From Planctomycetaceae bacterium (lineage in GTDB: Bacteria > Planctomycetota > Planctomycetia > Planctomycetales > Planctomycetaceae): a stretch of 64,000 bases of DNA. Where the stretch lies: assembly GCA_024742875.1 (NCBI GenBank), contig JANSXP010000003.1:62001-126000 (forward strand), in the 5' to 3' direction. Within the stretch, counting starts at the first letter, position 1. Every line of letters begins with the position of its first letter. Both the position numbers and the translations under genes were made by a program. The notes beneath the pieces were generated by a model. It made no database searches and had not been told where the DNA came from. It was given only the letters and a program-made list of their open reading frames with translations. This document shows positions 28,020 through 47,964 of this stretch, piece by piece.

Positions 28020-28331
28020 TCAACCCGTTTTCAACCGATTCAACACCTGAGTCACGCGAGCCCGGCTCACCCCCAGATAACGGGCCAATTCAGCCCGCGT
28101 CTCGACCTCGCCGGAATCCAGAAGCGACTGGTAATATCGAGCCCGCTCCATGCCATCATGGCGAGGCTTCTTATGTTCGCATTTGGGATGCGGAATGGCC
28201 GAAATGGGGTTCCACGGGTAGAACTCGACTTTCGGCGATCGACGTAAGTTGTTGATATGAAAGGCCCCCAGCTCAACGAGCCCATGTTCGCATAGAGTAC
28301 GACTCGGGGAGCTTTTCCGACGGTCATACAA
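28020..28331 (-). CDS. Small helix-turn-helix ORF overlapping the recombinase 3' end
   Basis: This 103-residue frame overlaps the last 265 bases of the recombinase frame. Its C-terminal half is convincing protein, with a clear helix-turn-helix (AELARYLGVSRARVTQVL), while the recombinase frame over the same bases looks random. The real start may be internal (an ATG at the MERARYYQSL segment). Either it is a separate DNA-binding protein, or it is the true C-terminus of the recombinase that has been put out of frame. HTH segments of this kind are often found with planctomycete serine recombinases. Confidence 0.5.
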   Translation of the reverse strand: MYDRRKSSPSRTLCEHGLVELGAFHINNLRRSPKVEFYPWNPISAIPHPKCEHKKPRHDGMERARYYQSLLDSGEVETRAELARYLGVSRARVTQVLNRLKTG

Positions 28332-30001
28332 ACCAAACCGTCTTCAGTTAACACATCGGGATCATTGTCAGATTTGGCTGTGGTCCCGTTTTTCGTTGGC
28401 TCCTGCGGCAGATTGCCGTTCGAGCGGCGTTCCTGCCAGTCGAAGCCACGATCCGGCCGGACTTCTGGGAACAGCTTCAAGACGTACGTTCCTTTGAGCC
28501 CCTTGTCCTCTTCTGATGGGTGCAGCTCCAGAACCTCGACGTAGTGCCTCAGCACCTGTGCCTGCTCGTCGGGGGTGGCAGCGTCCAAGATCGCTCCAAC
28601 GTCTTCCCACGCTTCCACAAATGCCTTCGCGTCGGCACTGATCTGCTCTGCAGGGGCTTGGCTCTCCTGAATCTCCTTCAAACGCCTCTTGAGTTCTTTG
28701 CGGTCTTTCTCAAGCTGTCGAAGCTCCGATTCAACGCTCTCCAGTCCGTTGGCACCGAGACTCTTCAGGACGTCCACTAAGCGTTTGATGTCCGCCTGCG
28801 TCTGCTGCTGCTGGCGACGGACGATCTCTTCTTCCTGCTTCAGACGGTCACCCTCGCCGGCGAGGCATTCAATGGCCCGGTCCACGATCTTCTCACGAGC
28901 CTCGACGTGCTGCCCGATGTCGCGGATTCGCCCGATCACAGCTTCTTCAAGGGCCTTCGCAGGAATGCGAGGGGCATTGCAACTTGTCTTGCCAGCTTCG
29001 TGGCTCTGCCGAGTGCACTGGTAGTAGAAGTAGACCTTGTTCCGGCCGTGCGTTGAGTAGCCCACCATGTGAGCTCCGCAAGAACACCGCAACAGGCCGG
29101 AAAGCAGATACTGACGGCCTCGTGGCTTCTTGTTGTTCGTCCGTCGTTTCGTCGAAGTCCCGATCTTGGATTGAACTCGATTGAATTGCTCCTTTGAGAT
29201 CAGAGGCTGGTGGCAATCGTCGACTTCCGATTCACCCCAACACACTTTGCCGATGTAAACGGGATTGCGAAGAATCCCGATGATCTTCTGTTTATTGAAG
29301 AGATTGCCGCCTCGAACTTTGTCCGTACGCGTTTTGTAAACGGGATACCGAACCCCGTTTTCGCCGAGTCGCCGTGTGATGGCTCCTGCGGAGCCAAGTT
29401 CTTCGAATCCGTCGAAGATGGAACGAACAACTGCGGCTCCTTCGTCTTCGACAATCAGTTTGCCGTCCACGCAGGTGTATCCAAGAACGTGACCACCGTT
29501 CCACAAGCCTCGTTCGGCCCGATCTCGCATGATGGCCACAGTTCGCTCAGCTGTCATCTTTCGTTCAAGCTGGGCGAAAACCATGATCAACTGGACCATG
29601 GCTTCGCCCGTTGGCATCGAAGTATCAAACTTCTCGCGAACAGAGATCACGTCAACGTCGTGATCCGCGAACAGCTCCCACAAATCTACGAAGTCTTTCA
29701 GGCTTCGCGTGATGCGATCCAGCTTGAAGCAGATGACAACGTCAACTTTCCCGTTAGAAATGTCGCGTTTCAGCCTCTTCAATTGTGGCCGATTCTGATT
29801 CTTGGCAGAACGTCCGGCATCGACGTAGAACTCGATCGAATCGACTTCCCATCCTTCACGCCGAGATCGAAAAGCGACTTCCTGCTCGATTTCGTTCTGC
29901 TGAGCGACAAGGCTGTCACCTTCGGTCGCCTGACGCTGAGACGAGACCCAAACATAACCGGCGATTCGCAACGGATTTGTCTTTGCGTTCTTTCTTCGCA
30001 T
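28067..30001 (-). CDS. Large serine recombinase (site-specific), probably catalytically altered
   Basis: This 644-residue protein has the large serine recombinase layout: an N-terminal resolvase domain (YVWVSSQRQ with catalytic Ser at 20 or 21, FKLDRITRS, VFAQLERKMTAERT), a recombinase domain (GYTCVDGKL to GILRNPVYIGKV), a zinc ribbon (LLRCSCGAHMVG, YQCTR, SC), and a long coiled coil at about 385-460. The family motif is Y-x-R-V-S; here the Arg is Trp18 (codon 29948-29950), which removes an active-site residue. The last 65 residues look like chance translation, and part of that stretch resembles antisense tRNA. Two small genes directly upstream are probably cotranscribed. Confidence 0.88.
   Translation of the reverse strand: MRRKNAKTNPLRIAGYVWVSSQRQATEGDSLVAQQNEIEQEVAFRSRREGWEVDSIEFYVDAGRSAKNQNRPQLKRLKRDISNGKVDVVICFKLDRITRSLKDFVDLWELFADHDVDVISVREKFDTSMPTGEAMVQLIMVFAQLERKMTAERTVAIMRDRAERGLWNGGHVLGYTCVDGKLIVEDEGAAVVRSIFDGFEELGSAGAITRRLGENGVRYPVYKTRTDKVRGGNLFNKQKIIGILRNPVYIGKVCWGESEVDDCHQPLISKEQFNRVQSKIGTSTKRRTNNKKPRGRQYLLSGLLRCSCGAHMVGYSTHGRNKVYFYYQCTRQSHEAGKTSCNAPRIPAKALEEAVIGRIRDIGQHVEAREKIVDRAIECLAGEGDRLKQEEEIVRRQQQQTQADIKRLVDVLKSLGANGLESVESELRQLEKDRKELKRRLKEIQESQAPAEQISADAKAFVEAWEDVGAILDAATPDEQAQVLRHYVEVLELHPSEEDKGLKGTYVLKLFPEVRPDRGFDWQERRSNGNLPQEPTKNGTTAKSDNDPDVLTEDGLVCMTVGKAPRVVLYANMGSLSWGPFISTTYVDRRKSSSTRGTPFRPFRIPNANIRSLAMMAWSGLDITSRFWIPARSRRGLNWPVIWG
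28262..28323 (+). other. tRNA-like remnant, possible attachment site
   Basis: On the plus strand this stretch reads like a shortened, degraded tRNA: CCCC-AGCTCAACGAGC resembles a 5' acceptor plus D-arm, and CGGGGAGCTTTTCCGACGG resembles the 3' acceptor of the tRNA-Asn and its downstream bases (20318-20337), with two one-base indels and one substitution. The repeats are in the same orientation. The recombinase reads through it on the other strand as GKAPRVVLYA. This fits an old integration at a tRNA gene, but the match is short and could be chance. Confidence 0.4.
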
Positions 30002-34810: not shown

Positions 34811-36220
34811 ATGATGGATCAACATGCCGACATACTATCGTACGCCGCTGAAGATGCGGACCAGTTGTCAGCTGCGCTCGCGAGCATCGTCGACTTAGAA
34901 CGCATCCACGACAGTCTTGGCCGCGGGCTTTTACACCACGCGGCTGAGGCGGGTAATGCGAAGTCCGTTGAGGTTTTGTTGGCTGCGGGACTTTCTCCCA
35001 ATCTTCACGATACTCACTGTCAGCACACACCATTGCACGAAGCCGCTTCAAGTGATTCAGCAGCGTGCGTTGCGCTTTTGCTTGAAGCAGGGGGCGCCCC
35101 AAACCTGCATAACGAACGTGACGAGACGCCGATCTTTGATGCTCGTTCAATCGAAGTTCTGGCGCTTCTGCTTGATGCCGGTGCGAAAGTCGATTTGAGG
35201 AACCGTAGTGGCCAGTCGTTGCTGAGATACACCGTCTTGCGAGTTGTGTCTCCGGAAGTGCTTGAGTTTTGGCTCGACCGCGACATGTCTGTCGACGATG
35301 TTGACGATCAGCATCGGACGGCGATTCACGGAATCTTTGAGTTCGGTTTTGACAACGTACGCATCGCGCACGCTGATCGAATGAAGTGCCTTAAACAATT
35401 GCTGGCGGCCGGGGCCGACGCCAATCACGCAGATGTAGGTGGCAGAACGCCGCTGCACCACGCAGCATGGCACAGCCACGATCACACGGATTACCTTGAG
35501 CGACTGCTGGCTGCGGGCGCCGATCCGAACTGTGTGGACAAGTCAGGCACAACGCCTCTGATGATGGCGGCATCGAAAGATCTGCTGCGTGTAGTCGATA
35601 TCCTGCTGGCGCACGGAGCCGACCCAAACGCCTTCGATACTTATCACAAGTACGCGGTGGATCTGTGTTCGAGCAAGTCAGAAGCAAAGCTGAGACTGCA
35701 GCAGGTCACGGAGAAAATCCCCAAGCCTGCAGTGAGAATGGCGGACATCGTAAAACGCGCCTTGGCGATACCTCGTTACTCAGAACAATCAGATTTCCAC
35801 AGTTCGGCAGGCTGCACTGCAGATGAAATCTCGACACTCGAATCGATCATTAGTACTACACTGCCAGATTCATACAGGCTGTTTCTCAGTAAGCTGGGGC
35901 ATGGACTGGGTGATTTTCTGACATGCGATCACATGACATTCCAGTATGAGTTCGTTCTCGAATCGGCTCGCAGTGACGCCGCTTCATTCAGGGAATTCGC
36001 GAACCTGCCAGAGGATGCCGTCATCATCATGACTCGGATGGGCGATTGGACGGCGTTTTACCGATATAACGCGCAATCGAAGGATCCTGCTGTTTACGCT
36101 GTGGAGCCAAACCCTGAGGACGCATTGGCAAAACCCAAGCGGATCGCTCGAAGTATCTCCGACTTCTTCGACGACGTGGTGCGCGACCACGAGCTGTGGT
36201 TTGGAACGGGTGAAACCTGA
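34811..36220 (+). CDS. Ankyrin-repeat protein with C-terminal SMI1/KNR4 (SUKH) domain
   Basis: Residues about 35-300 contain seven or so ankyrin repeats (GLLHHAAEAGNAKSVEVLL, TPLHEAASSDSAACVALLL, TPLHHAAWHSHDHTDYLERL, TPLMMAASKDLLRVVDILL). Residues about 325-465 match the SUKH/SMI1-KNR4 pattern: helix SAGCTADEISTLESII, LPDSYRLFLSKLGHGLGDFL, and a closing ISDFFDDVV helix. SUKH domains are immunity proteins against diverse nuclease and deaminase toxins. Fusion to ankyrin repeats is known but not common. The start has a second ATG directly after the first. Confidence 0.88.
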   Translation: MMDQHADILSYAAEDADQLSAALASIVDLERIHDSLGRGLLHHAAEAGNAKSVEVLLAAGLSPNLHDTHCQHTPLHEAASSDSAACVALLLEAGGAPNLHNERDETPIFDARSIEVLALLLDAGAKVDLRNRSGQSLLRYTVLRVVSPEVLEFWLDRDMSVDDVDDQHRTAIHGIFEFGFDNVRIAHADRMKCLKQLLAAGADANHADVGGRTPLHHAAWHSHDHTDYLERLLAAGADPNCVDKSGTTPLMMAASKDLLRVVDILLAHGADPNAFDTYHKYAVDLCSSKSEAKLRLQQVTEKIPKPAVRMADIVKRALAIPRYSEQSDFHSSAGCTADEISTLESIISTTLPDSYRLFLSKLGHGLGDFLTCDHMTFQYEFVLESARSDAASFREFANLPEDAVIIMTRMGDWTAFYRYNAQSKDPAVYAVEPNPEDALAKPKRIARSISDFFDDVVRDHELWFGTGET

Positions 36221-36772: not shown

Positions 36773-36952
36773 CTCAGAATCCTAAAGACAGTCCCTGCGC
36801 CGCTTGCACGCGATGCTCTACCTTCGTCGCCGATCACTCAGTATCGTGACCGGATTGGAAGAACGCGATCCCCGTGGGCTGAGATAGCGACGAAACCACG
36901 ATAAGATCAACGTGCGGTTCTCACTGTCTCCTGATCTTTCAAGGCCGTGGTT

Positions 36953-37648
36953 GTGGCACGCACTTCCACGATTGGCTTTATCTCGAAAACAAAACTCGAC
37001 GAGTTGTCTCGACAGCGAGATCGCCTCATCGAAAAGTATCAGACGCTCGTTAACGCGGCGCAGGCGGCGGTGGGGACGGAGCGGCTGCGAATCCTTCGCG
37101 ATGGCCTTGCTGATTTTGGCGGCTTGAACCCCATTCGTCCGACGGTGCTTCATCGCGACCTGCCCAATCTTGAAGCTCTTGTCGCGTCACAGAGTTGCTC
37201 TGATGACCTGTTGCAGTTCTGGGAAAACGAACTCCATTTGGTCGTCGATCGTGGCAAAAGACGTGCGGAAACCGTCTACGTATTCGGAGCGCTGCTGGTT
37301 GAATGGGACGATGCGGCGGATGCCGAACGCATCGCTCAGGAACATGCGGCTCACCAACGCCTTTTGAGCGAGGTCTGTTCGCCGTCGGCCGAGACTCCGA
37401 TGGAGATCCTCGACGCGATCCTTGCGAATTTCGCGGAGCATCGGCAGGCGATTCAGCGGGACATTTCAAACAGAATGGCTAAGTCCGAACACGGGGCAAC
37501 TGGCGGCTGGTACAGCTTGCAAGACAACCCACATGTGCCCAGTCACGTTCGTCAGGAAGCCCATCGATTCAGCAGCGATACTGTGCTCGAGAATCAATTC
37601 AACGATGCATTGAGTGCGGCGACGCGTGATCCGTCAGCATGGAATTGA
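36953..37648 (+). CDS. Upstream part of a divergent reverse transcriptase locus, ended by an in-frame TGA
   Basis: The start is a GTG at 36953 (AAGG nine bases before it) or the GTG at 36947. The protein, about 231 residues, is helical with an early coiled coil (LDELSRQRDRLIEKYQTLV). It shows no domain by itself. The stop at 37646-37648 is followed by 68 stop-free codons in the same frame leading straight into the reverse transcriptase ORF, so this is probably the N-terminal half of one protein of about 800 residues. It could also be a separate helper subunit. Confidence 0.7.
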   Translation: MARTSTIGFISKTKLDELSRQRDRLIEKYQTLVNAAQAAVGTERLRILRDGLADFGGLNPIRPTVLHRDLPNLEALVASQSCSDDLLQFWENELHLVVDRGKRRAETVYVFGALLVEWDDAADAERIAQEHAAHQRLLSEVCSPSAETPMEILDAILANFAEHRQAIQRDISNRMAKSEHGATGGWYSLQDNPHVPSHVRQEAHRFSSDTVLENQFNDALSAATRDPSAWN

Positions 37649-37852
37649 CCCGAAGAGGGAGTCGCATCACGTGCGATTTGGACTCGCAACAAGTGGCGGC
37701 TTTACCCGGATCTGTCATTTGTCGAATACGCGCTAACGGATTGTTGTTCGGAGCAATGGACCCGTGCGATCGACGACAACTTCAGTTCCATCGCTCTCAT
37801 CATCACCAGACAGGGTCGCATCAACCAACTTCGAGATCTTAATTCTCCGGAA

Positions 37853-39361
37853 GTGATTTGTCAGAACGAAATCCGAATGCTGAAGAAGGCACAGGATTCA
37901 GCGAACCTTGGCTGGTATGAGGAAATCGACCCCTGGACCGGTCGGCCGACTCTTGATGGAGACAACATCGGCGGCATCGTGTCGTTCCGCGCCGGTAAGC
38001 AGGCGGATTTGCGAAACAGCGGAGCCCGCGGCTACTACGACGAAGCCGTGAACCCAATGGTGCAGCTCGTGCATGCCGAGTTGCAGGTTCTTCTCGCCGC
38101 GTTTCCAGACCAGCCCATTCATGTCGCGAAACTCGACATACGCAACTACTTCACGAAAGTCTCGCACGACGTTCTCAAGAGCATGATGTCGGGCCTCGGA
38201 ATGACGGGCGACGGTCTGAATTTTCTTCAGCGGTTCATGAATGTTCCATGGCTTGTGAATGGACAGCCCCAGCCTGCGCAGCGGGGTGTTCCGATGGAAC
38301 AGCAGATGTCGCACTGGCTATGTGAAACTCTGCTGCGGCTGCTGGAACGACACGTTCACGAGAATTCACACGTACGGATCATTCGACAGATTGATGACAT
38401 TTGCCTGTTGGCTCCGGACGCTGGCGAAATCACAAAAGCGTGGAATGCCGTTGCCAATTTTCTGGCGGACGTCGGTTTGTCTGTGAATGAATCAAAGTGT
38501 GGTTGCGTCACTCTGAACGGCGACCAAACACTTCAACTCGCGGACTCAACTCCGTCCTGGGGAATGTTGCAATTGAATGCAGACGCGACCTGGAGCATTC
38601 ATGAATCGAGCTTCGAATCTTTCCTGGAATCCACTCGCCATCAGATTGAGTCGCGTAATTCGGTGATGTCGAAGGTGCTCAGCTACAACGAGCATATGAA
38701 ATTTCTGACGACATCGGTTGGCCTCGCGATGGATCTCGGCGAGCCCCATCGAACGGCGGCCAATACGGCGTGCGTGAGATTTGAGGATCATCTCTTTGCT
38801 GACCATGGCATTACCGAACTCATCACGCGGTTGATTTCTGAACGCTATACGAAGCACGCCGTTGACCTTCCGGAAAGCTGGTTCGCGTGGCCGATTACTG
38901 CCGGCGGCCTGAGTCTGCGATTGCTGTCGATTGTTCGCGGGCAGTATCAGCTTGCGTTCGACGAACGCAGTAAGACGCGCAAGACCGTTCCGGAAGAACA
39001 GCCCGATGACTGGCAATGGAAAAGCCAGCAGTGGACGGAGTTCTACGAGGACCATCTTGTTGCTCTTGAACGGGCAAAATGCCGCGACTCGGCCCGCATG
39101 AACCAACTTGTCGAAAGCTTCATCCGCCGAGGCAAATCACTTTCCGGCGGAAAGCAGGAAGGCCTGTCGGAATACTGGCGCTGGGTGCTCAGCATTCACG
39201 GACCTGTGATTCTCGATGCCTTCGGTACGTTTGAGTTTCTCCTTTCCGACCTTGTCCCGTTGCAGTTGATCCACGAGAAGCTGCTGCAACGTGGTGCTAT
39301 CCTAACGACGAATCAAGCATCGGCAGGCGAAGCTGATACGGCCTATTCCCAAAGCGATTGA
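37853..39361 (+). CDS. Divergent reverse transcriptase, defence-RT-like
   Basis: From a GTG at 37853 the protein has 502 residues and the palm motifs of a reverse transcriptase: motif A AKLDIRNYFTKVSHDVL (Asp95), motif B-like QRGVPMEQQMSHWL, and motif C RQIDDICLLAP (Asp181, Asp182), followed by ANFLADVGLSVNESKC as in motif D. The usual YADD is QIDD. There is no intron maturase, endonuclease or retron-type YxDD/VTG signature. After about residue 235 is a helical domain of 260 residues, a layout like the unknown-group or defence-associated RTs. The frame is open upstream to the TGA at 37646, so this ORF is likely the second half of a broken or recoded gene. Confidence 0.82.
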   Translation: MICQNEIRMLKKAQDSANLGWYEEIDPWTGRPTLDGDNIGGIVSFRAGKQADLRNSGARGYYDEAVNPMVQLVHAELQVLLAAFPDQPIHVAKLDIRNYFTKVSHDVLKSMMSGLGMTGDGLNFLQRFMNVPWLVNGQPQPAQRGVPMEQQMSHWLCETLLRLLERHVHENSHVRIIRQIDDICLLAPDAGEITKAWNAVANFLADVGLSVNESKCGCVTLNGDQTLQLADSTPSWGMLQLNADATWSIHESSFESFLESTRHQIESRNSVMSKVLSYNEHMKFLTTSVGLAMDLGEPHRTAANTACVRFEDHLFADHGITELITRLISERYTKHAVDLPESWFAWPITAGGLSLRLLSIVRGQYQLAFDERSKTRKTVPEEQPDDWQWKSQQWTEFYEDHLVALERAKCRDSARMNQLVESFIRRGKSLSGGKQEGLSEYWRWVLSIHGPVILDAFGTFEFLLSDLVPLQLIHEKLLQRGAILTTNQASAGEADTAYSQSD

Positions 39362-39559
39362 GCGTCTCGCTGGATCTCCGAATGCGGCGGTCTACGGTTG
39401 CTTGATTCAGCGGTCGGGCGAACCAGAAACTTCGGATTCCTCTGGTATTGCGAGCTACTGTTGCACATCGGCAACACGAACCGTCGGGAGCACTAGCAAA
39501 GGGTGTTCTCGGCCGCAGTTCGGTTAGTCTGAGCAATCGGTCAATGCAGGCTTGGAGAC

Positions 39560-43702: not shown

Positions 43703-44320
43703 TCAGCGTTCCATCCATCCCCAATTCTTGTCGAAGACGAATCGACCGTCCCGGTAGCCATCGCGGATCATCGTAAGAAACGTAGAGAGATCCGAGGCAA
43801 TGACCGCGATTTCGAACGGTTGTGTTCTGACCATAACAACCTGCCCAACGTTCCCGCCGGGTTCCGGATCGAGATCGATCACGAGGCTGTCGGAATTCTC
43901 AGTTGTCGTGAATCCGAGAACACGATCGTGGTACCTTGCAGGCCCGAGGATTTCGAAATCGTCAACGCACTCTGCCAGATCATCGAACTCCTGCCGCAAA
44001 CAATTGGTGATGCTGATAAGCTCACTGACGCTGTTGAACCACGTTGGGGAAGTTCGAGACATGATGTCATCGTCGTTCGCGTGTGTTTTCGGTTCGCCTC
44101 GAAACCGAATGGCTGGAAACAATGGGTCGGTCGACTGCGCCAGAAAATCTTGACCGTTCGCGGCGGCGTAGAACTGTTTCAAGTCATCCGGAAATTGCAG
44201 ACCCAGTTCGGTTTCGGCCGCCGCGATTTCTTCGGCCCTTACTGGCGGCAGGAAGTTTGGCGAGAGCGCCGGCCGAAGATCGCCGAGGATTTCAACGAGA
44301 TCGTTTATCAGTGCTTTCAT
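43703..44320 (-). CDS. SMI1/KNR4 (SUKH) family protein
   Basis: The protein has the SUKH pattern across its length: helix VRAEEIAAAETELGLQFPDDLKQFYAAANGQ, then a variable loop region, EILGPARYHDRVLGF, and a closing helix FEIAVIASDLSTFLTMIRDG. SUKH proteins bind and neutralise contact-dependent and polymorphic toxins. No toxin is adjacent. The length of 205 residues is normal for the family. Confidence 0.88.
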   Translation of the reverse strand: MKALINDLVEILGDLRPALSPNFLPPVRAEEIAAAETELGLQFPDDLKQFYAAANGQDFLAQSTDPLFPAIRFRGEPKTHANDDDIMSRTSPTWFNSVSELISITNCLRQEFDDLAECVDDFEILGPARYHDRVLGFTTTENSDSLVIDLDPEPGGNVGQVVMVRTQPFEIAVIASDLSTFLTMIRDGYRDGRFVFDKNWGWMER

Positions 44321-44865: not shown

Positions 44866-47800
44866 ATGACGATGGCCGACAACAAGACCGTTCGGATGTT
44901 TGAATTCGAAGACGACAAGTCCAGCAAGTTCTGGGAAGTCACAGTCGACGGCGTATCTGTGACAACTCGCTGGGGAAAGATCGGGGCGAACGGCCAGACC
45001 AAATCCAAAGATTACGATTCGCCAGCGGCCGCTGTGACTGCAGCCAATAAGGCTGTCTCACAGAAGACGAAGAAGGGCTACATCGAAGTCGGTGACAGCG
45101 GAGATCAAGATTCGACAAACGAGATTCCGTTCGAAAAAATCGAAGCTGCATTTCAAGATGAGCTTGGCAGCGTCATTGGCGAACTTCAGGGAGCGATCGG
45201 AGAGGCGCTGCTGGAACCGACGGCGTCAGGACGTATGAAGCGGACTCGTGTGCAGAGTGGAGTTCCCGATTCGATCACTGTGGAACCGGCGCTCGCAGAC
45301 TATCCTCAGGGGAGTCTGCCCTTAACTGTGGCCGAAGCCGTCGTTGAACAACTTGAAGGCTTTGAAATGCCGGGCGACTTTGTCATCCCGCAGGTGGGAG
45401 TCAAGTTTCGCAGCTTCTTCAGAGGTCCAAACCTATGGACCGTTGCCTATATGCTGGGCGAGATTGAATGGCTGGACGTCCGCCTGAGCTACGAAAGCGA
45501 GGAACATTCATTCGAAAACTTCACATGGACCAACGTGCCACAGCACGACGGCCTAACGCCTCCGTGGGAAACTCTATTTCATTTGCCCGACGCTTCACCG
45601 GCAGATCTGCTTCAGTTGGCCAGGGAATTTGAAGCCGAAGTGGACGGCGACCGCGTTCCGCAGAAGTTTGACATCTTCACCTTTGCACAGACTTTCGAGG
45701 ACGCTTACAGACGCGATATGGACTGGCGCAACGGCGTCTTCGCGGAGGCTGATAGCAACGTTCCCACGTTGGATGCGCGTGGGGAGATCGACCGAATTGC
45801 CGATGAACTACTTCAGCGCGCGCTGGGCGATCGCTATGACCACGCCGACATCCTGTGCGAAGACATGCTCGATCGGATTGGAGAACATGCAAAGCGGTTC
45901 GAGATCTCCGACGACGCCAAAGACACACTGCGGGCGGCTCGTGATTCTGTAGATCCGTGTCCCCATTTCAATTTCGATCAGACGCCCCGGCGTTTGCAGA
46001 TCGACAAAATCGTAGGTGACGACACTTCGCGGTTTCCGGTTGAAGCTGGCGAGGTATGGGCGAACCGAGCGATTACCGATGTCGCGGAACTTCCCGACGA
46101 ACAGCAGAGACTTGCCTGGTGCAATCTGGGTGCGCACTGCCTGACGGCGACGTCTTCGAAACCATCAGCGAAGTGGAAAAAGACGGCCACGCCATTCATC
46201 AAACAGATTGGTGCAGACAGGCTGCGCGATCTGGTCGGCACATGGCTTCCGCTTATCAACACGGGCAAGCCGCCTGTTGAATCCCGATGGGTGAGCGCCC
46301 ATCCGCTTTACCTCAGCGAACTCAACCAGACCGCTCTTCGAGGACTCATCTGGTGCTATAGCTTTGTGCCCGATGATCGTATGGCTCAACTGATGGCCAC
46401 GGTTGGTATCAGTGCTTACCGGAAGATTCCGCAAGTCGGCGCACGAGCGGTGAAGGTTGGCAACGCGTGTGTTTTCGCCATTTCCACCTTGGATGGAAGT
46501 GATGCGGTCGCTCAGCTTGCCCTGATGAAACTGAAAGTGAAGACCGGTTCGGCGCGGAATCTCATTGAAAAACAACTTGAGAAGGCCGCTAAGAAGCAAG
46601 GCATCTCGCGAGCCGAACTGGAAGAGATCTCGGTTCCGACATACGGCATGGAAGAGGTTGGTGAGCTTCGGGAACCACTGGGCGACTTCACGGCCAAAGC
46701 CACCATCGGAGCAAAGAAGGTGCAACTGACGTGGCTAAGACAGGACGGCAAAGAACAAAAATCAGTCCCTGCTGCCGTGAAAGCCGAATTTGCCGACGAT
46801 CTCAAAGAGCTGAAGGCCAACATCAAGGACATGGAAAAGATGCTGTCCGCACAACGTGGTCGCATCGAAAGTCAGTACCTGGAGCCCGCATCATGGCCCT
46901 TCGCAACCTGGAAAGAGCGCTACCTTGATCACCCTGTCGTGGGCACGATCGCCAGACGGCTGCTTTGGAAGTTCTCTTCAGCGGACGGTGATATCACGGC
47001 TCTCTACGGGGACGGCCAGTTCATTGGAGCCGATGGTGAAGGCGTTTCCTTCGCAGACGATGCGACGGTTCAACTCTGGCATCCACTCAACGAGCCTGCC
47101 GAGTCGGTTCTTGCATGGCGAGTGCTCCTTGAAGAACGTGGAATCTGCCAGCCATTCAAACAGGCTCACCGCGAAGTCTATCTGGTGACGGCTGCCGAGT
47201 TGACCACGCAAACGTATTCCAACCGTCAGGCCGCCCACATTCTCAGTCAGGCACAATACCGATCGCTCGCTCAGTCGCGACGATGGAAAGTGAACTTCCT
47301 TGGGGCATGGGATGGTGGCGACGAAGGGCTTGCAGAGATCAAGCTGAATCACTTCGGCATGCGAGCCGAGTTCCACGTCAATGCGGCTTATGAAGAAGAC
47401 GAATATGAAGTCCGTTACGTTTCAACGGATCAGGTTCGTTTCTTTCAACCGGCCGACGACAATCAGCCCATAAGCCTTGTCGATGTACCACCGATCGTGT
47501 TTTCCGAAATCATGCGGGACGTCGACCTGTTTGTTGGCGTCGCAAGCGTTGGCAACGATCCCAATTGGCAAGATGGCGGACCGGAAGGTACTTACCGCGA
47601 CTATTGGCACAATTACGCATTCGGCGACCTCACAGAAACCGCAGCCACGCGCAAGGAGGTGCTGCAGCGGCTGATTCCTCGGCTGAAAATCGCTGACAAA
47701 TGCCGAATCGACGGTCGGTTTCTTGAAGTGCAGGGTCAACTCCGCACTTATCGAATTCATCTTGGCAGCAGCAACATCCTGATGGCTCCTAACGACCAGT

Positions 47801-47964
47801 ACCTCTGCATCGTCCCCGCTCGCACGGGTTCAAAAGTTGACCGCATCAGTCTGCCGTTTGAAGGCGACAGCACACTGAGTGTCATTCTCAGCAAAGCCTT
47901 CCTTCTGGTGGATGACCACAAGATCAAAGACCCGTCGATCATTAGCCAGATTCAGGGTGGATAG
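44866..47964 (+). CDS. WGR-domain / DUF4132 protein
   Basis: Residues about 8-75 are a WGR domain (RMFEFEDDKSSKFWEV, VTTRWGKIGANGQT), a fold that binds nucleic acid or protein. The remaining 950 residues match the MolR/DUF4132 pattern: helical repeats, AVKVGNACVFAI, EKAAKKQGISRAELEE, VPTYGME and a closing beta region (RISLPFEGDSTLSVILSKAFLL). The molecular function of DUF4132 is not established; WGR-DUF4132 fusions occur widely. Two ATG codons (44866, 44872) are possible starts. Confidence 0.88.
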   Translation: MTMADNKTVRMFEFEDDKSSKFWEVTVDGVSVTTRWGKIGANGQTKSKDYDSPAAAVTAANKAVSQKTKKGYIEVGDSGDQDSTNEIPFEKIEAAFQDELGSVIGELQGAIGEALLEPTASGRMKRTRVQSGVPDSITVEPALADYPQGSLPLTVAEAVVEQLEGFEMPGDFVIPQVGVKFRSFFRGPNLWTVAYMLGEIEWLDVRLSYESEEHSFENFTWTNVPQHDGLTPPWETLFHLPDASPADLLQLAREFEAEVDGDRVPQKFDIFTFAQTFEDAYRRDMDWRNGVFAEADSNVPTLDARGEIDRIADELLQRALGDRYDHADILCEDMLDRIGEHAKRFEISDDAKDTLRAARDSVDPCPHFNFDQTPRRLQIDKIVGDDTSRFPVEAGEVWANRAITDVAELPDEQQRLAWCNLGAHCLTATSSKPSAKWKKTATPFIKQIGADRLRDLVGTWLPLINTGKPPVESRWVSAHPLYLSELNQTALRGLIWCYSFVPDDRMAQLMATVGISAYRKIPQVGARAVKVGNACVFAISTLDGSDAVAQLALMKLKVKTGSARNLIEKQLEKAAKKQGISRAELEEISVPTYGMEEVGELREPLGDFTAKATIGAKKVQLTWLRQDGKEQKSVPAAVKAEFADDLKELKANIKDMEKMLSAQRGRIESQYLEPASWPFATWKERYLDHPVVGTIARRLLWKFSSADGDITALYGDGQFIGADGEGVSFADDATVQLWHPLNEPAESVLAWRVLLEERGICQPFKQAHREVYLVTAAELTTQTYSNRQAAHILSQAQYRSLAQSRRWKVNFLGAWDGGDEGLAEIKLNHFGMRAEFHVNAAYEEDEYEVRYVSTDQVRFFQPADDNQPISLVDVPPIVFSEIMRDVDLFVGVASVGNDPNWQDGGPEGTYRDYWHNYAFGDLTETAATRKEVLQRLIPRLKIADKCRIDGRFLEVQGQLRTYRIHLGSSNILMAPNDQYLCIVPARTGSKVDRISLPFEGDSTLSVILSKAFLLVDDHKIKDPSIISQIQGG

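What the first reader, a model, noticed from the sequence alone, without database searches (positions are those of the whole stretch)
36953..39361. Highly divergent reverse transcriptase inside an immunity island
Motifs A (LDIRNYF), C (QIDD in place of YADD) and a D-like motif are clear, but the flanking domains are not those of group II introns, retrons or DGRs. The layout, with a long N-terminal helical part, an RT core and a long helical C-terminus, is like defence-associated or unknown-group RTs. It lies alone among immunity-type genes, with no maturase or Cas1. It could be a new DRT-like anti-phage system, possibly with a noncoding RNA in the 174-base upstream gap (36773-36946) or the 198-base downstream gap (39362-39559).
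Basis: partly seen in the sequence, partly recalled or inferred. Interest (0 to 1): 0.85.

Follow-up and report, generated by a model that had tools for sequence, protein, structure and literature searches.

The report
Defence-type reverse transcriptase mimicking RNA polymerase
The gene is an interrupted copy of a rare, little-studied bacterial reverse transcriptase of a kind linked to defence against viruses, and four divergent members, this one included, carry a short hairpin closely resembling the spot on RNA polymerase where the promoter-finding sigma factor docks, which suggests, but does not show, that these enzymes bind that factor.

Summary
The reverse transcriptase (RT) is real. Both halves match PADLOC family RT_UG37 in register (1.1e-30 and 7.5e-146), and the catalytic Asp residues are invariant in 16 aligned members. 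It is not a group II intron or retron RT. The gene is not one open frame: a TGA at 37646-37648 interrupts it where 15 of 15 intact relatives have a sense codon, so this copy is probably inactive or misassembled. No conserved RNA was found in the window's gaps.

The unexpected part is a 31-residue segment before the RT core (37805-37897) that matches the tip of the beta' (RpoC) clamp helices, where sigma region 2 and NusG dock. Four divergent members hit rpoC models singly at 0.00017-0.013; as a profile they hit RpoC in the PDB at 7e-9. Of eight published sigma-contact residues, six are identical in all four, one in three and one in two. Models show helix-loop-helix there. Two members have a degenerate segment and ten none; a whole-family profile does not find RpoC.

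Best reading: a UG37 variant that binds sigma through a beta' mimic. Binding and defence are inferred. I saw no mention in the papers searched.

The parts
36947..37645 (+). N-terminal helical domain of the UG37 RT (233 aa; start GTG at 36947 or 36953)
   Evidence: PADLOC RT_UG37 profile 6-228, E 1.1e-30; the matching part is helical in the L023 model
37646..37648 (+). in-frame TGA that interrupts the gene
   Evidence: 15 of 15 full-length relatives have a sense codon in this column
37649..39358 (+). rest of the UG37 RT (570 aa, same frame)
   Evidence: PADLOC RT_UG37 profile 231-772, E 7.5e-146
37805..37897 (+). RpoC (beta') clamp-helix-tip-like hairpin, aligned to E. coli beta' 274-304
   Evidence: rpoC NCBIfam E 0.0016 for the single protein; four-member profile vs PDB RpoC 7e-9; hhalign probability 97; helices 35-63 and 68-84 in the model
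38111..38512 (+). RT core (RVT_1); catalytic Asp codons at 38135-38137, 38393-38395 and 38396-38398
   Evidence: Pfam PF00078 2.6e-10; D163, D249 and D250 invariant in A6
38513..39358 (+). C-terminal helical domain with family motifs WPITAGG and FGTFxFL..LVP
   Evidence: conserved columns of A2; helices, the last part at low confidence, in the models

Best explanation
The locus is an interrupted copy of a single-gene UG37 (defence-class) reverse transcriptase. Intact members have an N-terminal helical domain, then in one subset a hairpin that copies the tip of the RNA polymerase beta' clamp helices, then a catalytically complete RT core and a long helical C-terminus. I propose that the hairpin binds region 2 of the host's sigma factor, as the beta' clamp helices do. 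Published work says that this contact raises sigma region 2's affinity for single-stranded -10 DNA, so an RT-sigma complex could hold single-stranded DNA (its own product or a phage transcription bubble) or withhold sigma from RNA polymerase during infection. Shown by computation: family, catalytic residues, interruption, sequence match and predicted hairpin. Inferred: sigma binding, its consequence, and defence.
For: Family. Catalytic Asp invariant in 16 rows. Clamp-helix match: single proteins hit rpoC models at the same beta' place in 4 of 10 members tested: window 0.0016, L023 0.00017, L022 0.002, L039 0.013. Profile of those four vs all PDB sequences: best 7e-9, the 60 shown of 73 all RNA polymerase chains. 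hhalign vs 16 RpoC segments: probability 97; column-shuffle control at most 7.6 bits in 100 against 44.7 real. In 11 UG37 genomes (the window's plus ten) this profile hit only UG37 genes and rpoC at E <= 0.1 (rpoC context checked); the window genome gave one further hit at 0.48. The sigma32 interface on beta' is R275, R278, R281, L282, L285, I291, E295, M298 (PMC10216364 passage): R275, R278, L282, L285, I291 and E295 are identical in all four UG37 segments, M298 in three, R281 in two (K in L022, Q in the window). At positions invariant in 11 host RpoCs, contact residues are kept in 27 of 28 cells and others in 23 of 44. Substitutions R275Q, E295K and A302D impair holoenzyme formation (PMC8321222 passage). 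sigmaR2 bound to beta'-CH has higher affinity for -10 ssDNA (PMC12000874 passage). In three of four members (window, L022, L023) the segment is clearly closer to RpoCs of its own phylum. Both AlphaFold models give helix-break-helix at the right place.
Against: The four rows of the profile were chosen by eye for the resemblance among the 13 rows shown, so 7e-9 overstates the case; the unselected basis is the single-protein values. A profile of all 16 members finds only RT-type chains in the PDB at E <= 0.01 (21 hits), and no Pfam RNA polymerase domain was reported for any of 10 members. Of 16 members with the region, 4 have the clear motif, 2 are degenerate (5 of 9 key positions) and 10 are not recognisable, so the hairpin is not needed for all UG37 function. 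The shared stretch is only about 31 residues; the helix parts outside it are not RpoC-like. The motif is more conserved than average within the four but 89 of 521 windows are at least as conserved. The position test is weak (Fisher one-sided p 0.025), and contact residues may be kept for helix packing. A302 is kept only in the window; L039 has Asp there, the substitution reported to impair holoenzyme formation, though the ungapped alignment is unsure past 299. L039's segment is no closer to its own RpoC than to two planctomycete ones (14 each). The hairpin tip has modest model confidence (pLDDT about 55-70). NusG binds the same tip. The window's own copy is interrupted.
Confidence: 0.5

Rival explanations
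1. The hairpin binds NusG or a NusG-like factor (or another protein that uses the clamp-helix tip) instead of sigma, tying the RT to elongating transcription.
For: NusG uses the same clamp helices; R270, R278 and R281 are named as key (PMC12364105 abstract). R278 is invariant in the four UG37 segments.
Against: R281 is Q in the window and K in L022; R270 lies outside the shared stretch; the pattern kept fits the sigma contact list better.
Confidence: 0.15
2. The segment is a chance or decaying resemblance with no partner in the transcription machinery; UG37 works as an ordinary DRT that makes untemplated or RNA-templated DNA.
For: 10 of 16 members lack the motif, yet the family is under purifying selection in a six-species genus without it (dN/dS 0.08-0.14 in five pairs). 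A whole-family profile does not find RpoC. Other DRTs act by DNA synthesis, with or without an ncRNA template (PMC12632851 passages).
Against: Four members 33-49% identical to one another share it with RpoC, each at the same beta' place; shuffled profiles do not approach the real score. Pure chance is unlikely; lack of function is not excluded.
Confidence: 0.3
3. The window copy itself is a dead remnant, so it does nothing in this organism whatever the family does.
For: In-frame TGA, no ATG/GTG/TTG start in frame until 37853. 5 of 20 UG37 loci found are broken: window TGA; L026, L041 and L043 internal deletions; L028 in two frames and at a contig end.
Against: No second stop or frame change in the 803 codons on either side. 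The genome is a 168-contig assembly, so an assembly error is possible. UGA followed by C is recalled (no call) as a leaky stop context, so some read-through cannot be excluded.
Confidence: 0.6

Closest known systems
RT_UG37 (PADLOC PDLC03776, listed under DRT)
   Same: Match in register over both halves, same N and C domains, catalytic residues
   Different: Interrupted by TGA; belongs to a divergent planctomycete branch (608 bits read through, against 1200-1293 for L025, L027 and the six-species genus) that carries the RpoC-like hairpin
RNA polymerase beta' (RpoC) clamp helices / coiled coil
   Same: 31 residues, predicted helix-loop-helix, sigma-contact residues
   Different: Only the tip; the rest of RpoC is not present; set inside an RT
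DRT2 / DRT9 / DRT10 (Class 2 UG RTs)
   Same: UG-type RT core; DRT9 is among the hits of the family profile and DRT9 and DRT2 among the Foldseek hits
   Different: No ncRNA or partner gene established here; larger N-terminal part; UG37's class was not established with these tools
Group II intron RT (maturase)
   Same: RT core profile similarity (TIGR04416 3.8e-15)
   Different: 55.9 bits against a cut-off of 300; no maturase domain found

Membership tests
RT_UG37 (candidate DRT) | Full-length match to the UG37 profile in order | tested here: met
   Profile 6-228 and 231-772, E 1.1e-30 and 7.5e-146; next family for the C half UG17 1.6e-12; whole 2e-182 with 1 TGA
RT_UG37 (candidate DRT) | Catalytic Asp of motifs A and C | tested here: met
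   Invariant in 16 rows
RT_UG37 (candidate DRT) | Intact open reading frame | tested here: not met
   TGA at 37646-37648; intact copies exist in 15 relatives
DRT (functional anti-phage system) | Protects against phage | not testable with these tools
   Needs plaque assays
DRT with associated ncRNA (DRT2/9/10 type) | Conserved structured ncRNA next to the RT | tested here: inconclusive
   None found in the window gaps. A six-species genus has a conserved non-coding downstream block, not supported by covariation (term +2.28, 4 of 98 pairs with double changes, five species)
Group II intron RT | Score above group_II_RT_mat cut-off, maturase domain | tested here: not met
   55.9 of 300 bits, no maturase Pfam hit
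Retron RT | Retron RT model | tested here: not met
   retron_St85 12.5 of 235 bits
Abi RT (AbiA) | AbiA model | tested here: not met
   11 of 250 bits
DGR RT | DGR RT model, variable repeat pair | not tested
   No DGR-specific model or repeat search was run
beta' clamp-helix (sigma-binding) element | Sequence similarity to beta' 274-304 | tested here: met
   Single proteins 0.00017-0.013; 7e-9 as a four-member profile chosen for the resemblance; probability 97 by hhalign
beta' clamp-helix (sigma-binding) element | Helix-loop-helix at the same place | tested here: met
   L023 model helices 266-304 and 308-322; window model 35-63 and 68-84; modest confidence
beta' clamp-helix (sigma-binding) element | Residues whose substitution impairs sigma binding (R275, E295, A302) | tested here: inconclusive
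   R275 and E295 in 4 of 4; A302 in 1 of 4
beta' clamp-helix (sigma-binding) element | Binds sigma region 2 | not testable with these tools
   Needs a binding assay

The most novel reading that the evidence does not exclude
A branch of defence-type reverse transcriptases has taken on the RNA polymerase clamp-helix tip and uses it to capture the host's own sigma factor. The bound sigma is switched into its single-stranded -10-DNA-binding state, so that the RT becomes a sigma-programmed machine that either grips phage promoter bubbles or makes DNA that soaks up sigma, coupling reverse transcription to control of transcription initiation.
Probability: 0.25. Interest if true: 0.9.

Novelty: new variant of a known kind. 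Interest (0 to 1): 0.62.

Why it matters
No function for UG37 turned up in my searches. A beta' clamp-helix mimic in an RT would be a new link between bacterial reverse transcription and the transcription machinery, and it gives a precise, cheap test (sigma binding, with substitutions at residues already mapped in beta') for an otherwise uncharacterised RT group. It would also suggest that withholding or redirecting sigma can be a host-side defence strategy.

Tried and rejected
Rejected: group II intron, retron or AbiA RT. Not supported for the window: a conserved ncRNA in the gaps. No phage or plasmid carriage in the collections searched: no match in plasmids, phages or, with pattern-limited scans, viral contigs. 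The hairpin segment of L023 matches 15 phage-collection records: 13 at 65-69% identity over the RpoC-like stretch (4 of them annotated as RNA polymerase beta'/rpoC, 9 without annotation) and 2 weak ones at E 0.4, of which one is annotated DNA helicase/polymerase and one not; the hairpin profile found nothing in viral contigs. Led nowhere: pdb_via (library absent); Foldseek of the L023 model, whose 50 shown of 730 hits are RTs, telomerases, viral RNA polymerases and spliceosome chains, mostly at low TM-score; NAR gkac467, recalled as the UG/Abi survey, is not held. Papers: 'UG37' with 'reverse transcriptase' gives 11 papers, none on bacterial RTs by title. No paper holds 'clamp helices', 'reverse transcriptase' and 'anti-phage' together (10 of 197 listed, best two terms each), none holds rpoC with all four RT-group terms (10 of 117 listed), and the 6 listed of 7 with sigma factor, mimic, phage defense, RNA polymerase and reverse transcriptase are unrelated by title. 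So 'not in print' rests on these listings only.

Counts: UG37 at E <= 1e-20 in 1 of 392 genomes of the window's phylum, 15 of 400 of the phylum of L025, 1 of 298 in the class of L024, 1 of 296 in the order of L022, 7 of 47 in the class of L023 and 8 of 158 in the class of L039. These sets overlap and several are samples; L002 came only. Other phyla were covered only by the one pattern-limited scan (7 loci) and 14 control genomes. At E <= 0.001 the family also rings in 3 of 14 control genomes, which I take for generic RT similarity, hence the stricter limit.

Full report
What is there. The finding spans two stretches in one frame, 36947-37648 and 37649-39361, divided by an in-frame TGA at 37646-37648. 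The first half matches the PADLOC family RT_UG37 at profile positions 6-228 (1.1e-30) and the second at 231-772 (7.5e-146); the next best family for the second half is UG17 at 1.6e-12. Read through by the search tool, the whole gene scores 2e-182 with one TGA. The only Pfam domain above its cut-off is RVT_1. Group II maturase, retron and AbiA models stay far below their cut-offs.

Relatives. One genome-collection scan gave seven loci, L022-L028; L002 came, and L031-L036, L038-L041 and L043 from a sample of the phylum of L025, Chloroflexota. Together with the window these are 20 distinct loci. Fifteen are intact full-length genes, and all 15 have a sense codon where the window has TGA. Five are broken: the window (TGA); L026, L041 and L043 (N-terminal part followed directly by a far C-terminal part, so internal deletions); and L028 (two frames, at a contig end). 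Of the 20, 16 are from Chloroflexota and 4 from Planctomycetota, but these two phyla are also where I looked; other phyla were covered only by the pattern-limited scan and 14 control genomes. No relative was found in the plasmid, phage or viral collections. In one set of six species (L031-L036) the gene lies in the same flanks and shows dN/dS of 0.08-0.14 in five pairs, so it is vertically inherited and under purifying selection, which is unusual for a mobile defence gene.

Catalysis. The Asp residues of motifs A and C (D420, D506, D507 in L023) are invariant in all 16 aligned members, so the family is expected to be catalytically active. Motif C is x-[IVLM]-DD rather than YADD.

The unexpected segment. 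Residues 53-83 of the second half (window 37805-37897) resemble RpoC. The window protein alone hits rpoC models at 0.0016, L023 at 0.00017, L022 at 0.002 and L039 at 0.013, around positions 254-287 of TIGR02386 or the matching place of other rpoC models; six other members tested (L024, L038, L040, L025, L031, L002) do not. A profile of the four segments (A3) searched against all PDB sequences hits RpoC at 7e-9; 73 sequences passed E 1 and the 60 shown are all RNA polymerase chains, aligned to E. coli beta' 274-304. Against 16 RpoC segments hhalign gives probability 97, and 100 column-shuffled profiles reach at most 7.6 bits against 44.7 for the real one. In the window's genome and ten other UG37 genomes the profile finds only UG37 genes and rpoC at E <= 0.1. 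Against this: the four rows were picked by eye for the resemblance from the 13 rows shown, so the profile value is flattering; a profile of all 16 members finds 21 RT-type chains and no RpoC at E <= 0.01; and Pfam reports no RNA polymerase domain in any of 10 members.

Why sigma. The published sigma32 interface on the clamp helix is R275, R278, R281, L282, L285, I291, E295 and M298 (PMC10216364, passage). R275, R278, L282, L285, I291 and E295 are identical in all four UG37 segments; M298 is M in three and L in L039; R281 is R in L023 and L039, K in L022 and Q in the window. Among positions invariant in the 11 host RpoCs, contact cells are kept 27 of 28 times and others 23 of 44; position-wise 6 of 7 against 3 of 11 (Fisher one-sided p 0.025). 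R275Q, E295K and A302D of beta' give deficient holoenzyme formation (PMC8321222, passage); of these positions A302 is kept only in the window, and L039 has Asp there, though the ungapped alignment is unsure past 299 and planctomycete RpoCs themselves have Ser. The two planctomycete segments match planctomycete RpoC best (window 15 of 26 against 12-13 for Chloroflexota; L022 18-19 against 15-17), L023 matches Chloroflexota RpoC best (16-19 against 13-14), and L039 is undecided (14-15 against 13-14; 14 with its own). NusG uses the same helices (PMC12364105, abstract), so it remains a rival.

Structure. AlphaFold with six rows gave a moderate model of L023 (pLDDT 68, pTM 0.60) with helices 266-304 and 308-322 separated by the GAP loop, and of the window's second half (pLDDT 61, pTM 0.55) with helices 35-63 and 68-84. 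This is the helix-loop-helix expected for a clamp-helix tip, at modest local confidence (about 55-70 at the tip). Foldseek finds RT folds (R2, LINE-1, group II, DRT9, DRT2) among the 50 shown of 730.

Evolution. In a tree of 14 members built without the segment, window and L022 are sisters (100/100), L024 (degenerate segment) is their neighbour (94/95), and L023 and L039 lie in an unresolved fork with them; the clear-motif label needs 3 changes and is not significantly clustered (147 of 500 shuffles as low). Gain in an ancestor followed by erosion in several lines is a simple reading; repeated gain is not excluded. L024 and L038 keep 5 of the 9 positions invariant in the four; the other ten members show no recognisable motif. 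Within the four, the segment is more conserved than average (0.55 against 0.41 mean pairwise identity) and holds the sixth-highest separate peak, but 89 of 521 windows are at least as high, which counts against very strong selection.

Mechanism. Published work states that binding of sigma region 2 to the clamp helices raises its affinity for -10 single-stranded DNA (PMC12000874, passage; a 2001 Cell paper titled on a beta' coiled coil inducing non-template strand binding by sigma70 was seen only in reference lists). A clamp-helix mimic on an RT could therefore hold sigma in a DNA-binding state or keep it from RNA polymerase. Sigma binding, its effect and phage defence are inferences; I put sigma binding at about one half.

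ncRNA. The window's upstream gap folds like its shuffles (z -0.24) and the downstream gap mildly better (z -1.78, 9 of 200 shuffles as good). Neither matches an Rfam family, and neither shares sequence with the flanks of the 15 relatives compared (up to 600 bases each side, 103 upstream for L024 and 442 downstream for L038). In the six-species set the roughly 395-base downstream gap holds blocks of 90-95% invariance across five species (L034 left out because of an insertion) against about 60% identity at four-fold sites between the two subgroups. It was found once in each of those six genomes and in none of nine others, without covariation support and without an Rfam match: RNA or regulatory DNA, undecided.

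Verdict. An interrupted member of a known but uncharacterised RT group, with an RNA polymerase clamp-helix mimic shared by a divergent subset that I found in no paper searched. The locus alone would be ordinary; the mimic makes it worth testing.

Noticed in passing
L032:3940-4110 and the matching place in L031, L033, L035, L036: Strongly conserved single-copy non-coding blocks downstream of the UG37 gene in a six-species set, including a near-invariant hairpin; could be an ncRNA or the next gene's control region.
   Followed up: partly
L026:5529-6870, L041:1501-2417, L043:1377-1800: UG37 remnants in three genomes in which the N-terminal part runs straight into the far C-terminal part, with three different junctions: internal deletions that keep the gene ends.
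   Followed up: partly
L031-L036: UG37 gene in the same place across six species, starting 14-29 bases behind what looks by eye like hisG (seen in L032); a gene that looks by eye like hisS/hisZ lies upstream of the UG37 gene in L022 as well. Neither name was tested.
   Followed up: no
L023:3665-5197: TIR-domain protein ending 77 bases upstream of the intact CH-bearing UG37 gene (PADLOC TIR models, best 1.3e-12).
   Followed up: partly
window 28067-30001 (-): Large serine recombinase (Resolvase, Recombinase, Zn_ribbon_recom), perhaps marking one end of an integrated island that holds the RT.
   Followed up: no
window 34811-36220, 43703-44320, 44866-47964: Ankyrin-SUKH fusion, a second SUKH protein and a WGR-DUF4132-DUF7737 protein around the RT: immunity-type rather than clear phage-defence neighbours.
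   Followed up: partly
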